DNA of 64,000 bases from Phocaeicola salanitronis DSM 18170. GTDB lineage: Bacteria; Bacteroidota; Bacteroidia; Bacteroidales; Bacteroidaceae. The notes under the pieces are model-generated. The model saw only the letters and a program-made list of their open reading frames with translations. It was not told the origin of the DNA and ran no database searches. Below, piece after piece: positions 50,927 through 55,995 of this stretch; the stretch's first letter is position 1; every line of letters starts with the position of its first letter. Both the position numbers and the translations under genes were made by a program. The stretch lies in the NCBI RefSeq assembly GCF_000190575.1, contig NC_015164.1, forward strand, positions 2,930,001-2,994,000, in the 5' to 3' direction.

Positions 50927-52520
50927 CCTTAAATCCGCAACTCCATTCCCGAAGTGCTACCTACATAAAGAGAAATGGACTTTTGATTCGTAAGATAACC
51001 ATTAAGTCCTCGCGTCCGTTTCAATGCGCATACCATCCCCTTACCCCATAAAGCGACTTGAGGCAATACGCAATCAGTGGCCATCAAGTGATGTAAATCA
51101 TCCGGAAGAAGTTTTGAAGGCTTCTGCATATGCATGGTTGTCGGTGTAGATATTCAGCACACATTGCCTTGCGGTCTTAATCCACTTGGCAGGTACTGAA
51201 ATGAATTTGAAGACAAACGTCTTGATACGGCTGGTTTCCTTGAGCCCGAACTTCTTCACTTCAATCCTTTGCATGATGGCCTTGTAGAAATTGCGTATCA
51301 GTGCCGTCAGGAGCAGGAACACGGTATTTTCCGCCATGAAGGATTTAGGCAGTCTGTCCCATCCAAACCCATTGTTCATGTCATCAAAGACGCGTTCCTT
51401 GCCACCGCGCATGTTATAGAACTCCACGATGTCCCTCATGGATGATTCGTAATCGTTGGTCAGGATGCAGCGGTATGTATATTCCCCCTCCCACAGGTCC
51501 GGTCCACTGCCCATGCGTCTCTGTCTCTGGATTACCAGGCGATACGGTTTGCCCTTCCACTTCTCAACGAGAATGGAGTTCAACTCAAACACGATGCCGT
51601 TTATCTCTTCCTTCTTCCACCCTCTGAGCGCGAAGATGTCATCATAGAGCGAGCAGCAGCGGTTGGCGCGTATGTAGAATGTCCTGCAATGCTTCCTGAC
51701 CTCATCCACAATGTCTTCAGAGCATGAGCCGCAGTCGGCCCTGAAGCGTTTGACTGTCAGCTTCTTCTCTTCAAGTCTCTCCAAAATCCTCTTTAGCGTG
51801 TCCTTCTGGTGAAAGCGTACATTGGTGTTGCCGTCGCTGTTCTCTATGCCGACAATCATGTCGCCGATAACGGCCACACCGGACCTGTAACCAAGAAATT
51901 TCTTGTACGTGGGCTTTGCATCGTACTTCTCCGCCTCAATGAACTGGTGGTCAAAGTCAACGTCATACTCCCCGCCCTCTTTCAACTGCCCTGTGGACAA
52001 CAGGCAATTCAGGAGCAATGTGTTGAGTGTGTCTGCCGTATTGAAATCATAGGACTTTCCGGCATCAGACGTGTATGAGATGTTTTCCCGGGTCAGTTCG
52101 TTTATTGCCCTAAGGATGGTGTCGGCGCTACAGGTGCGGAGTGTGGGGTGAAGGGAAAGATGACTCATTAAGTGGGCGGTGACATCCTCAACGCAAGAAC
52201 CGCCGCAGAAGTAAACGCATAGGAGGGAGCGGATGATTTCGCTGTATTGATAACCATAGAGTTTGCATCTCAACCCAAGTGTTGAGTCAATTGTAGAGGA
52301 GAGAAGGGAGGTAAATTGCTCCATGATTGGAAATATGCCTCCAAAAGGAGTGAGTCTTTCGGATTTTATTGCTACCTTTGCCATGCCTGTTGCGGTTTTC
52401 TTTGTCTTTGGATTCGCAACACTAAGGTAAGTGAAAACGCTGACATGGCAAAAACCTGGGCAACAAAATGTTGCTCAGGAACTTATAAAAATAATTATCA
52501 ATTATGTTGCGGAATTAAGG
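50927..52520 (-). mobile_element. IS1380-family insertion sequence (1594 bp)
   Basis: Ends are CCTTAAATCCGCAAC (50927-50941) and GTTGCGGAATTAAGG (52506-52520), inverted repeats matching at 14 of 15 positions, flanked by the TTTAG duplication. One transposase gene on the minus strand. Size and ends fit the Bacteroides group that includes IS942/IS612-IS614, known for driving cfiA and other resistance genes from outward promoters. A TACCTTTG (52373-52380) on the plus strand could serve as the -7 of an outward promoter toward ermF. Confidence 0.93.
51098..52384 (-). CDS. IS1380-family transposase
   Basis: 428 residues (MAKVAIKSERLTPFGGIFPI). DDE transposase: YDVDFDHQFIEAEKY (first Asp region, ~140-155), RFRADCGSCSEDI (second Asp), and a C-terminal FDDMNNGFGWDRLPKSFM (Glu/Asp region) followed by the FLLLTALIRNFYKAIM helix of the family. 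Appears intact. Lies antisense to ermF, with its start 191 bases from the ermF start. Confidence 0.93.
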   Translation of the reverse strand: MAKVAIKSERLTPFGGIFPIMEQFTSLLSSTIDSTLGLRCKLYGYQYSEIIRSLLCVYFCGGSCVEDVTAHLMSHLSLHPTLRTCSADTILRAINELTRENISYTSDAGKSYDFNTADTLNTLLLNCLLSTGQLKEGGEYDVDFDHQFIEAEKYDAKPTYKKFLGYRSGVAVIGDMIVGIENSDGNTNVRFHQKDTLKRILERLEEKKLTVKRFRADCGSCSEDIVDEVRKHCRTFYIRANRCCSLYDDIFALRGWKKEEINGIVFELNSILVEKWKGKPYRLVIQRQRRMGSGPDLWEGEYTYRCILTNDYESSMRDIVEFYNMRGGKERVFDDMNNGFGWDRLPKSFMAENTVFLLLTALIRNFYKAIMQRIEVKKFGLKETSRIKTFVFKFISVPAKWIKTARQCVLNIYTDNHAYAEAFKTSSG

Positions 52521-52574
52521 TTTAGGAAAATTCAGAAAGGAACAATTCAAGTATTCACCTGTAAGAAGTTACTA

Positions 52575-53375
52575 ATGACAAAAAAGAAATTGCCCGTTCG
52601 TTTTACGGGTCAGCACTTTACTATTGATAAAGTGCTAATAAAAGATGCAATAAGACAAGCAAATATAAGTAATCAGGATACGGTTTTAGATATTGGGGCA
52701 GGCAAGGGGTTTCTTACTGTTCATTTATTAAAAATCGCCAACAATGTTGTTGCTATTGAAAACGACACAGCTTTGGTTGAACATTTACGAAAATTATTTT
52801 CTGATGCCCGAAATGTTCAAGTTGTCGGTTGTGATTTTAGGAATTTTGCAGTTCCGAAATTTCCTTTCAAAGTGGTGTCAAATATTCCTTATGGCATTAC
52901 TTCCGATATTTTCAAAATCCTGATGTTTGAGAGTCTTGGAAATTTTCTGGGAGGTTCCATTGTCCTTCAGTTAGAACCTACACAAAAGTTATTTTCGAGG
53001 AAGCTTTACAATCCATATACCGTTTTCTATCATACTTTTTTTGATTTGAAACTTGTCTATGAGGTAGGTCCTGAAAGTTTCTTTCCACCGCCAACTGTCA
53101 AATCAGCCCTGTTAAACATTAAAAGAAAACAGTTATTTTTTGATTTTAAGTTTAAAGCCAAATACTTAGCATTTATTTCCTGTCTGTTAGAGAAACCTGA
53201 TTTATCTGTAAAAACAGCTTTAAAGTCGATTTTCAGGAAAAGTCAGGTCAGGTCAATTTCGGAAAAATTCGGTTTAAACCTTAATGCTCAAATTGTTTGT
53301 TTGTCTCCAAGTCAATGGGTAAACTGTTTTTTGGAAATGCTGGAAGTTGTCCCTGAAAAATTTCATCCTTCGTAG
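52575..53375 (+). CDS. ermF: 23S rRNA (adenine-N6) dimethyltransferase ErmF
   Basis: 266 residues from ATG 52575 (MTKKKLPVRFTGQHFTIDKV), the length of ErmF. Dimethylates A2058 of 23S rRNA, giving macrolide-lincosamide-streptogramin B resistance. S-adenosylmethionine site VLDIGAGKGFLT (~36-47) and catalytic NIPYG (~99-103) are intact. The frame stays open upstream into the IS end (to a GTG at 52431), and before IS insertion it probably joined the short MKKVF frame. Expression now likely depends on the IS end. AT-rich compared with the tra genes. Confidence 0.97.
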   Translation: MTKKKLPVRFTGQHFTIDKVLIKDAIRQANISNQDTVLDIGAGKGFLTVHLLKIANNVVAIENDTALVEHLRKLFSDARNVQVVGCDFRNFAVPKFPFKVVSNIPYGITSDIFKILMFESLGNFLGGSIVLQLEPTQKLFSRKLYNPYTVFYHTFFDLKLVYEVGPESFFPPPTVKSALLNIKRKQLFFDFKFKAKYLAFISCLLEKPDLSVKTALKSIFRKSQVRSISEKFGLNLNAQIVCLSPSQWVNCFLEMLEVVPEKFHPS

Positions 53376-53433
53376 TTCAAAGTCGGGTGGTTGTCAAGAT
53401 GATTTTTCTGGTTTGGTGTCGTCTTTTAAGCTG

Positions 53434-53561
53434 CCGCATAACGAAAAATGGTAGCCGTAGTTGCCGGATTTACAGCACTTTCGTATCAATTTAGCACTTC
53501 GGTTCGTTAAAAGCACCAAAGTATCAAGTTGGCACGAAAGCCGGCAATTATCGGCTACCAT
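53434..53561. repeat. attC-like imperfect inverted repeat, interrupted by the group II intron
   Basis: The arm ATGGTAGCCGTAGTTGCCGG (53448-53467) pairs with CCGGCAATTATCGGCTACCAT (53541-53561), leaving a ~73-base structured loop. The outermost 8 bases CCGCATAA (53434-53441) have their partner TTATGCGG only after the intron, where T63 of the 5' exon and TATGCGG (55480-55486) of the 3' exon would join on splicing or in the pre-insertion DNA. The form resembles an integron cassette recombination site; equivalence is not proved. Confidence 0.6.
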
Positions 53562-53563
53562 AT

Positions 53564-55479
53564 GTGTGTGCCCTGCATATGCAGGACACACCCCGAAAGC
53601 TTTTCAAATAGTTCAAAAATACAAATTTAGTTTTACGAACCAAGTTTTCGGGGTGTTATTTTTCCAGAGGGTGCAAGTCCCTTACGAGCGGATTGAAACC
53701 CCGAATCGTTAGCAAGCTGCAAGGTGGTTTATCGTGAGGTATGCACTGAAGGAAGCAGAACTGCAAAAGTCTGTACCGACGAACAGAAAGTACATAAGAG
53801 GCATAACAATAAGGATGAGTATCCACAGCAATACGAAGTCCAAAACAGTGTTCTGAACATGCTATTAAATCAGATTATTGTTATGTAGATGTACCGGCGA
53901 TAGACGGAAGGAAAAAGCATTTACCAGGGGAGGTCTTGGCGATTACGAGTTAATCAATCCAAGAAGTCAGCAGAGGTCATAGTACTTGAGGGCAAACGAG
54001 GTGCGAATAGATACCGCATAGGTCTCACAAACAAGGAAGGACTGAACGTAAAGAGGTTTTCAATAGGTAACGGAACACATAGTAGCCCTACTTAACGAAA
54101 ACAGGTTAAAAACAACTAAAATGATAACAAGAGTAGTACATCCGTTTAATCTTCAAAGAGCATTGGAACACGTGATTGCCAATAAAGGTAGTGCGGGTGT
54201 TGATGGTGTTTCTATAAGAGAGCTCCGCAAGGTGTTTTCTGAAAAGAAACTACAACTGATTGAAGCAATCAAACAAGGCAACTATCAAGTACAACCCATT
54301 TTAGGTATTGAAATTCCGAAAGGAAATGGGAAAACTCGATTATTGGGTGTTCCCACCACTACAGAACGTGTGTTGCAACAAGCCTTAGCACAAACTATTG
54401 CACCACTTTTTGAGCCCGAATTTAGTAATTACAGCTATGGATTTAGACCTCACAAGAATGCCCGACAAGCCGTTGGACAATCTCGGGATTACATCCATTC
54501 AGGATTAAACCACATTGTGGATATTGACCTGAAAAACTTCTTTGATGAAGTTGACCACTGTTTATTACTGAATTTAATCTATCAAAAAGTGAAATGCAAA
54601 GCTACCATGCAACTCATACGCAAATGGCTCAGAGCACCTATTAAAATCAACGGAAAGCTACGAAAGAGAAGAAAAGGCGTTCCGCAAGGAAGCCCTTTAA
54701 GTCCATTATTGTCGAACATTTTACTACATCAACTGGATAAGGAAATGACTCGAAGAGGACACAAATTTGTACGTTATGCGGATGATTTTAGTATTTATTG
54801 CAAAAGCCACAATCAAGCCAAGGCAACAAGAGTGGTAATTGAAAAGTTTTTGAAAAACAAACTCAAATTAACTATAAATGAAGAAAAGAGTGGTATCAGA
54901 AAACCAATCCACTTCACAATTTTGGGTTTCGGATTCGTACCTACGTACGAGAAAGGAAGTAAAAATCAATACCAACTTATTGTATCGGAAAAAGCATGGA
55001 AGAAACTAAAAGAACGACTTAAAACAATCACCCGAAAAACCACACCAGCCACATTTGAAGAGCGTATTGCCAAGATAAAAGAAGTGCAACGCGGATGGTT
55101 GAACTATTTCCAAGGCACGAGTATTTTGGGCAAATTACGAGATTTAGATGGTTGGCTTCGCAACCGACTGCGCTATTGCATTTGTCATCATTGGAAAAAA
55201 CCCGAAAGGAAAAGGAAAAACCTGATTCGATTAGGTGTAGACCAAGACCATGCCTACGCTTGGAGCAGAACACGGAAAGGCGGTTGGGCAATAGCACAAA
55301 GTCCTATTCTAGGCACTACCATTACTTTACAACGCTTGAAGAAAAGAGGATATGTTTCCTTAACTGAATTACATTTACAACTTAACCCATCTCTTTGCGA
55401 ACCGCCGAGTACGTGACCCGTACGCTCGGTGGTGTGAGAGGCGCACTCCGTCAGTTACTGGCGGAGCCGTCTACTCGAT
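53564..55479 (+). mobile_element. Group II intron with maturase (about 1.9 kb)
   Basis: 5' end GTGTG (53564, consensus GUGYG), 3' end CTACTCGAT (ends AT, consensus AY). Domain I region includes the GGGTGCAAGTCCC loop (53668-53680). Domain V-like hairpin GAACCGCCGAGTACG... with GGTGGTGTGAG at 55398-55438, then a domain VI-like stem CTCCGTCAG/CTGGCGGAG (55446-55466). An intact reverse transcriptase ORF lies inside. Exact ends rest on consensus and on restoring the broken repeat outside. Confidence 0.85.
54121..55416 (+). CDS. ltrA: Group II intron reverse transcriptase/maturase
   Basis: 431 residues. Reverse transcriptase blocks: NKGSAGVDGVSI, IPKGNGKTRLLGVP, FSNYSYGFRPHKNARQA, DIDLKNFFDEVDH, GVPQGSPLSPLLSNI and the active site FVRYADDFSIYC (YADD ~224-227). 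The maturase X domain follows (KRLKT... to LNYFQGTSILGKLRDLDGWL). No HNH endonuclease domain is present, as in bacterial class C/D introns. The stop codon lies inside the domain V sequence, so the ORF runs further 3' than usual. Confidence 0.93.
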   Translation: MITRVVHPFNLQRALEHVIANKGSAGVDGVSIRELRKVFSEKKLQLIEAIKQGNYQVQPILGIEIPKGNGKTRLLGVPTTTERVLQQALAQTIAPLFEPEFSNYSYGFRPHKNARQAVGQSRDYIHSGLNHIVDIDLKNFFDEVDHCLLLNLIYQKVKCKATMQLIRKWLRAPIKINGKLRKRRKGVPQGSPLSPLLSNILLHQLDKEMTRRGHKFVRYADDFSIYCKSHNQAKATRVVIEKFLKNKLKLTINEEKSGIRKPIHFTILGFGFVPTYEKGSKNQYQLIVSEKAWKKLKERLKTITRKTTPATFEERIAKIKEVQRGWLNYFQGTSILGKLRDLDGWLRNRLRYCICHHWKKPERKRKNLIRLGVDQDHAYAWSRTRKGGWAIAQSPILGTTITLQRLKKRGYVSLTELHLQLNPSLCEPPST

Positions 55480-55995
55480 TATGCGGTCGGTTTTCATTTT
55501 CTCTTCTTTCTCGTTAATTTGTCAAGCAAAGTTACTAAATTTGCAGTCAAGCAATTTCAATTTTTGAATTATGTATTTCAGCAGACCTTGGACTTCTATC
55601 TAAGTGATAGGCAGTCCTGAAAATTCCAATCTCTTTTAGGTCAAGACAATTAGTCTATGGGTTTCGTGTACCGACTTTTTTGTAAAGGCGTTACGTTGTC
55701 ATAGTTGCTCTGTCGGGTAATACTGTCTATTCACTTCTCCACGATTTCAACAACAAAAATGATTGAACGTATCAAATCGTTGGGGGAAATGGAGACGAAG
55801 CAGAAATGTGTAGTTCAACGGTTCGAGATTATCATTCCCCTCCACCAAAAAATAACGACCCAATATATAGCCTCCGCAAGTTTTACTTGCGGATTTTTTA
55901 GTTATCGCAGATTGGACAAAGGTTTCTTTGCTACTTTCTTTGTCCGCCATCATGCTCACTGAAAGAAAGTAGGGCGGCTCTCGCCGCCCCGCCAC
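55480..55995. other. Non-coding stretch after the intron with terminators
   Basis: No gene supported. Holds the second copy of TTTCTCGTTAATT (55507-55519). A plus-strand terminator TCCGCAAG/CTTGCGGA with a T run lies at 55873-55899. An 11-bp inverted repeat CTACTTTCTTT/AAAGAAAGTAG spans 55931-55972. A GC-rich hairpin GGGCGGC/GCCGCCC (55972-55989) can terminate the minus-strand gene block that follows. Confidence 0.65.

What the first reader, a model, noticed from the sequence alone, without database searches (positions are those of the whole stretch)
53434..55490. Group II intron inserted in the outer arm of an attC-like repeat downstream of ermF
Seen: ATGGTAGCCG.TAGTTGCCGG and CCGGCAATTATCGGCTACCAT form a large imperfect hairpin right after ermF, and the next-outer arm CCGCATAA (53434) finds its partner TTATGCGG only when the exons on both sides of the intron are joined. 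The inferred intron ends (GTGTG...CGAT) fit consensus, so the restored repeat independently supports the boundaries. Known: some group II introns of class C target integron attC sites or terminators. Inference: ermF may have travelled as a cassette-like unit with a recombination site, later hit by the intron.
Basis: partly seen in the sequence, partly recalled or inferred. Interest (0 to 1): 0.72.

Follow-up and report, generated by a model that had tools for sequence, protein, structure and literature searches.

The report
Integron-like cassette site with intron
The hairpin next to this erythromycin-resistance gene looks like a joining site of an integron-like gene-swapping system of Bacteroidota that sits beside a different recombinase than classical integrons use, and a self-splicing intron has landed in it at the position related introns use in classical integrons.

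Summary
The hairpin after ermF is real (z -5.1) and attC-like. The intron spans 53566-55479, two bases later than read, inserted at TGT|T, the point IIC-attC introns use. The "restored repeat" needs correction: intron-free ermF loci run from this hairpin into blaOXA-347. Both arms in the window are ends of one ermF cassette, so the locus is a circularly permuted ermF cassette.

The site belongs to a large family. A covariance model finds sites in 197 of 395 Bacteroidota-phylum genomes. Cassette-end arms match (118 of 138 at >=5/6; shuffled mean 7.5). In 46 loci with a XerA-type recombinase and sites, 149 of 150 sites obey one orientation rule. Four loci with identical XerA and attI-like sequence diverge exactly at the AAC box. 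These recombinases lack the IntI insertion (spacing 89-94 in 46 of 46; 131 in 10 of 10 IntI).

This is integron architecture with a non-IntI recombinase; catalysis is inferred. Ten searches of an open-licence library showed no description; one 2026 paper noted attC-like stem-loops in Riemerella.

The parts
52546..55748 (.). Inserted unit: circularly permuted ermF cassette (ermF, hairpin, intron, ermF promoter-side end)
   Evidence: Flanked by a 5-bp direct repeat AACAA (52541-52545, 55749-55753), read by eye against the empty conjugative-element site in L155
52575..53375 (+). erm(F)
   Evidence: NF012223 605.6 bits, cut-off 575
53434..53442 (+). CCGCATAAC: right end of the ermF cassette and AAC box of the attC-like site
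53434..53571 (+). attC-like site that in plasmid loci precedes the OXA-347/-209 cassette (integron bottom strand = window +); the last six bases of the model match are intron
   Evidence: R1 75.9 bits, not independent because R1 holds this hairpin; R2, built without it, 53.6 bits, E 1.1e-12; fold z -5.10
53564..53565 (+). GT of the TGT|T insertion point (last exon bases)
   Evidence: 10 intron 5' ends compared
53566..55479 (+). Group II intron, class C-like
   Evidence: Borders from other copies; Rfam RF02001 and RF01998
54121..55416 (+). Intron-encoded reverse transcriptase/maturase
   Evidence: TIGR04416; nearest solved relative GsI-IIC RT, E 1.5e-94
55480..55747 (+). Promoter-side (left) end of the ermF cassette, beginning TATGCGG
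   Evidence: 100% identical to L016:3901-4168 over 268 nt

Best explanation
The hairpin is an attC-like recombination site of a Bacteroidota integron-like system. Cassettes begin G|TT-X6 and end X6'-AAC followed by a hairpin, mostly carry one gene, and sit in arrays that start at an attI-like site beside a XerA-type tyrosine recombinase, which recombines at G|TT (this last step is inferred). ermF, ereD, tet(X), blaOXA-347/-209, estT and others are such cassettes on plasmids. In this window an ermF cassette sits opened in its promoter, its two ends joined by the hairpin that elsewhere belongs to an OXA cassette, and a class C-like group II intron interrupts the site at TGT|T on the strand that corresponds to the attC bottom strand. 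Shown by sequence: cassette structure, attI junctions, orientation rule, intron target. Inferred: that XerA catalyses the exchange, that the folded single strand is the substrate, and how the permuted ermF unit arose (recombination between two intron copies, or strand exchange at the other box).
For: Model sites in 197 of 395 phylum genomes. Arms of consecutive sites: 104 of 138 pairs 6/6, 118 at >=5/6; 500 shuffles mean 7.5, max 16. Main frame forward with the site downstream in 122 of 138 intervals. XerA-site orientation rule 149 of 150 sites in 46 loci, out of 96 loci with a XerA of at least 240 bits. attI: L017, L055, L056 and L057 are identical from xerA to AACTACTGGATATCC and diverge directly left of AAC; L058-L064 keep the motif. 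L127/L134 diverge just after GTT(G) behind the xerA stop. IntI insertion absent: box I Arg to box II His 89-94 residues in 46 of 46 site-bearing loci, 131 in 10 of 10 canonical IntI. 0 of 74 same-class genomes with sites have IntI over the cut-off. Covariation score 0.655 against 0.179 shuffled. Intron target in 10 of 10 resolved 5' ends.
Against: No recombination was observed. 48 of the 80 XerA relatives kept show no site in the flank held, and the array recombinases are not one clade apart from site-less XerA. The second geometry's attI rests on one clean pair: of 8 pairs compared, L172/L173 stay similar nine bases past GTT, L076/L083 match elsewhere, five do not align. 105 of 395 phylum genomes carry canonical IntI; by eye no displayed R1 row lies near a displayed IntI row, but both lists are capped. 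Hairpins are not strictly tied to one gene: L002 has this hairpin with another right arm and no OXA gene in its 3.1 kb, and one long hairpin type precedes ereD, catB, floR and others. The OXA site folds equally well on both strands; 61 of 282 sites fold better on the other strand, and the model itself favours the strand counted. R1 also hits 3 of 10 non-Bacteroidota genomes at E<=0.01.
Confidence: 0.85

Rival explanations
1. The hairpins are ordinary terminators or repeated intergenic hairpins, and class C introns hit them as they hit any terminator.
For: Class C introns also use terminator hairpins (passages of PMC7923331); the sites lie between genes.
Against: Matching cassette-end arms, identical attI-like sequence with divergence exactly at the junction, orientation relative to XerA in 149 of 150 sites, hairpins that keep their right-hand gene while the left neighbour changes.
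Confidence: 0.05
2. These are canonical integrons whose IntI lies elsewhere in the genome; XerA next to the arrays is incidental.
For: 105 of 395 phylum genomes have TIGR02249 over its cut-off.
Against: 0 of 74 same-class genomes with sites carry one; XerA sits at the head of the array in both geometries with an attI-like sequence conserved beside it.
Confidence: 0.07
3. On the sub-question of the window junction: the ermF ends were joined by the OXA hairpin when a recombinase made a circle by exchanging strands at the other box, before the intron arrived, rather than by recombination between two intron copies.
For: The unit is a circular permutation with a 5-bp target repeat; a shift of the exchange point to the other box is described for a mutated VCR top strand (PMC2727003 passage).
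Against: Hairpin co-travel places the normal exchange point on the other side; recombination between intron copies in the two flanking sites gives the same junction. No intermediate of either route was seen.
Confidence: 0.35

Closest known systems
Integrons (IntI, attI, attC)
   Same: attI beside the recombinase gene, junction at G|TT, one-oriented arrays of mostly single-gene cassettes, AAC/GTT boxes, G after AAC, unpaired spacer between box and stem, cassette-matched outer arms
   Different: Recombinase is XerA-type without the IntI insertion; most sites are about 135 nt, some about 200, with a conserved G.T wobble in the stem (21 of 22) and no consistent extrahelical base; the recombinase gene can point either way
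Group IIC-attC introns
   Same: Inserted after the hairpin on the bottom-equivalent strand at TGT|T; opposite to the OXA gene that follows this hairpin elsewhere
   Different: Intron-encoded protein lies outside the three class 1 integron introns compared (clade 100/99); the target is the Bacteroidota site type
attC-like stem-loop downstream of aph(3')-IVb in Riemerella anatipestifer (PMC13148043, passages read)
   Same: A resistance gene moved with a 140-bp 3' region that folds like attC
   Different: The passages seen name no recombinase, attI or array family

Membership tests
Integron (IntI type) | Integrase with the IntI-specific insertion around patch III (PMC9668308 and PMC8138268, passages) | tested here: not met
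   Box I Arg to box II His spacing 89 (36), 90 (6) or 94 (4) in 46 site-bearing loci, 131 in 10 of 10 canonical IntI; P0001 passes NF040815 (238.5 of 220) and stays under TIGR02249 (205.9 of 265)
Integron (IntI type) | attI next to the integrase, junction at G|TT | tested here: met
   Four loci with identical XerA and attI-like sequence, seven more with the motif; one clean pair in the other geometry
Integron (IntI type) | Array of cassettes separated by attC sites, same orientation, end arms matching within a cassette | tested here: met
Integron (IntI type) | attC extrahelical bases in the L stem | tested here: not met
   Consensus stem is continuous: 2 of 22 rows have a letter in its only bulge column, and a G.T wobble is conserved instead; single sites may still have unpaired bases
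Integron (IntI type) | Recombination of the folded bottom strand by the integrase | not testable with these tools
   219 of 282 sites fold better on the bottom-equivalent strand, 61 on the other, 2 tie; biased by the model
Group IIC-attC intron | Insertion into the attC bottom strand at TTGT/T after the hairpin (PMC7923331 passages) | tested here: met
   10 of 10 resolved 5' ends read TGT|; 20 of 22 3' exons begin with T
Group IIC-attC intron | Class C intron-encoded protein | tested here: met
   Best solved relative GsI-IIC RT E 1.5e-94, LtrA 5.1e-40; intron RNA class not tested
Group IIC-attC intron | Member of the IIC-attC protein lineage | tested here: inconclusive
   Outside the clade of 3 class 1 integron introns (100/99), but only 17 rows, and the 8 Bacteroidota rows are not firmly one clade (52/79)

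The most novel reading that the evidence does not exclude
Bacteroidota carry a widespread second class of integrons in which a XerA-type recombinase without the IntI domain inserts cassettes at attI by G|TT exchange with hairpin sites that mark their strand by a conserved G.T wobble; this system assembled the ermF, tet(X), blaOXA-347, estT and ereD resistance plasmids, and its own lineage of class C introns specialised on its sites.
Probability: 0.75. Interest if true: 0.9.

Novelty: new variant of a known kind. Interest (0 to 1): 0.8.

Why it matters
ermF, tet(X) and OXA-347 are common Bacteroidota resistance genes whose mobility is usually ascribed to IS elements and conjugative transposons (recalled). 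A cassette system that the integron survey passages seen here do not report would explain how they are shuffled, offers a mechanism for the homology-independent integration left open in PMC13148043 (passages), and would show that an integron architecture can be headed by a recombinase lacking the domain held to be essential for it (PMC8138268 passage).

Full report
What was checked. ermF ends at 53375. The stretch 53434-53565 folds as a long hairpin, z -5.10 on the window plus strand and -5.18 on the other. A group II intron follows. A search with ermF's 3' region and the hairpin gave 16 plasmid records and 10 of 395 phylum genomes, the own one included.

Intron borders. Copies of the intron family in other genomes sit after other hairpins. 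Of 17 site matches printed from the loci of the intron search, 10 run into an intron start, and the junction is TGT|GTGTG (9) or TGT|GTTTG (1); the other matches are sites without an intron there, and many fetched loci hold only part of an intron. The 3' end CTACTCGAT is followed by T and then A or G in 20 of 22 copies; the other two are copies within one genome with the same 3' flank. The intron is therefore 53566-55479. The protein's nearest solved relative is the class C RT GsI-IIC (E 1.5e-94). Insertion point, strand and upstream hairpin are those described for IIC-attC introns (R'' of the bottom strand, TTGT/T; passages of PMC7923331). The window protein lies outside the three class 1 integron introns compared (L176, L177, L180), in a tree of 17 rows.

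Whose hairpin. In the five plasmid loci L012-L016 this hairpin is followed, on its right, by a blaOXA gene, while its left neighbour changes: estT (L012, L014), a MarR-type regulator (L013), tet(X) (L015) or ermF (L016). Hairpins of tet(X) (L014, L015 twice, L018), estT (L013, L015) and ermF (L013, L014, L016, L017, L019) likewise keep the gene on their right. It is not a strict rule: one long hairpin type precedes ereD, catB, floR and others, and L002 has the OXA-type hairpin with another right arm and no OXA gene in its 3.1 kb. Taken together, exchange occurs at the AAC side as read on the window plus strand, which is the G|TT side of the opposite, integron 'top' strand. On that strand OXA, tet(X) and estT read forward with the site downstream, as in integrons; ermF and ereD are reversed. 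The TTATGCGG that follows the intron in the window is the promoter-side end of the ermF cassette. Both arms in the window are thus ends of one cassette. The unit 52546-55748 is a circular permutation of the ermF cassette, opened in the promoter and flanked by a 5-bp repeat in a conjugative element whose empty site is L155. How the OXA-type hairpin came to join the two ermF ends is open: recombination between intron copies in the two flanking sites, or exchange at the other box.

The site family. Twenty-two sites aligned (A1) share AACG and TGTT in every row. The structure has 24 pairs, 18 with changes on both sides; 93.3% of cells pair against 66.1% shuffled, and the covariation score exceeds 500 of 500 shuffles. 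A G.T wobble in the stem is kept in 21 of 22, and one beside the AAC/GTT box in 22 of 22. Extrahelical bases, a feature of known attC sites (PMC2727003 passages), are absent from the consensus. Model R1 finds sites in 197 of 395 genomes, 107 of 170 genera, with at most 8 candidates scored per genome. A model built without the OXA hairpin, R2, still finds the window site (E 1.1e-12). Of ten non-Bacteroidota genomes carrying XerA relatives, three have matches at E<=0.01. In the nine site-rich genomes fetched, the sites of a stretch lie on one strand, apart from weak second matches on the back of the same site.

Cassette rule. Over 138 consecutive site pairs from fetched arrays and XerA loci, the six bases after GTT of one site and before AAC of the next are complementary 6/6 in 104 and >=5/6 in 118; 500 shuffles average 7.5 and reach at most 16. 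The two arms of the same hairpin match 2.47 of 6 on average in 200 sites. The main open frame is forward in 122, reverse in 6, ambiguous in 4 and absent in 6 of 138.

Recombinase and attI. On a Flagellimonas plasmid ermF is followed by AACTACTGGATATCC and a XerA-type gene (L017). Three further loci (L055, L056, L057; XerA 100% identical) are identical with it up to that AAC and then differ; L058-L064 keep the motif. With array loci and ten genomes fetched for sub-cut-off TIGR02249 hits (eight have sites, L166-L173; L174 and L175 have none; two were chosen because sites were known there), 46 loci hold both, and 149 of 150 sites obey one rule: sites upstream of xerA lie on its strand, sites downstream on the other, so the array always starts at the recombinase. 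In the second geometry one of eight pairs compared (L127/L134) shows attI just behind the xerA stop, diverging after GTT(G); one (L172/L173) stays similar for nine bases more, one matches elsewhere, five do not align. All 46 recombinases have 89-94 residues between the box I arginine and the box II histidine; ten of ten canonical IntI from the same phylum have 131. Ten IntI form one clade (SH-aLRT 99); the array recombinases lie outside it but mixed with some site-less XerA proteins (quick tree). TIGR02249 is over its cut-off in 105 of 395 genomes, but in none of the 74 same-class genomes with sites.

Literature seen. PMC13148043 (passages) reports attC-like stem-loops after aph(3')-IVb and homology-independent integration by an unknown mechanism. 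[quoted passage not shown] PMC8618304 and PMC9668308 (passages) list Bacteroidota among phyla with integrons, and PMC2426708 (passages) the Bacteroidetes/Chlorobi group. PMC8352920 (passages) has no Bacteroidota attC model among its 11 taxa. PMC8138268 (passages) calls the IntI insertion essential for integron function though not fully conserved in its integron-like subgroup. NCBI names NF040815 'site-specific tyrosine recombinase/integron integrase', so part of the link may be known to its curators. None of the listings shows a paper on a XerA-headed cassette array.

Verdict. The object is an attC-like site with a IIC-attC-like intron, from a Bacteroidota integron-like system. It works like an integron by architecture; by the IntI criterion it is not one. 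Catalysis by XerA is inferred.

Noticed in passing
L020:4588-4773 (E. coli plasmid pLHM10-1): The last 186 nt of this intron lie directly beside tet(X4), joined at ..CTACTCGAT|TATGTGCC. 208 of 239 plasmid records with an intron match are at >=99% identity, and the 25 such rows listed all cover just this stretch. Only this one record was opened; it suggests that tet(X4) left an intron-bearing Bacteroidota cassette array.
   Followed up: partly
L018:4175-6961: A B. fragilis plasmid carries what looks like a larger circular permutation (ermF, tet(X2), another cassette), opened at the same point of the ermF promoter as in the window.
   Followed up: partly
window 50927-52520: IS1380-family element inserted in the conjugative element 25 bases left of the ermF unit, with a 5-base overlap in the empty-site alignment.
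   Followed up: no
G404 (Spirochaetes MAG), G400 (Clostridiales MAG), G398 (Sporosalibacterium): Site-model matches down to E 1.6e-22 outside Bacteroidota: the system may be wider, or the MAGs contaminated.
   Followed up: no
L105, L109, L119, L167: Array recombinases in frames of 453-458 residues with an N-terminal extension of unknown role.
   Followed up: no
L172: Very AT-rich sites (GC mostly 0.25-0.35) packed every few hundred bases to two kb next to XerA.
   Followed up: no
G186 C1:3222000-3301449 (L166, L141-L143, L004): Chromosomal array of about 77 kb headed by a XerA gene that contains an ermF cassette (ermF 99% identical in L004).
   Followed up: partly
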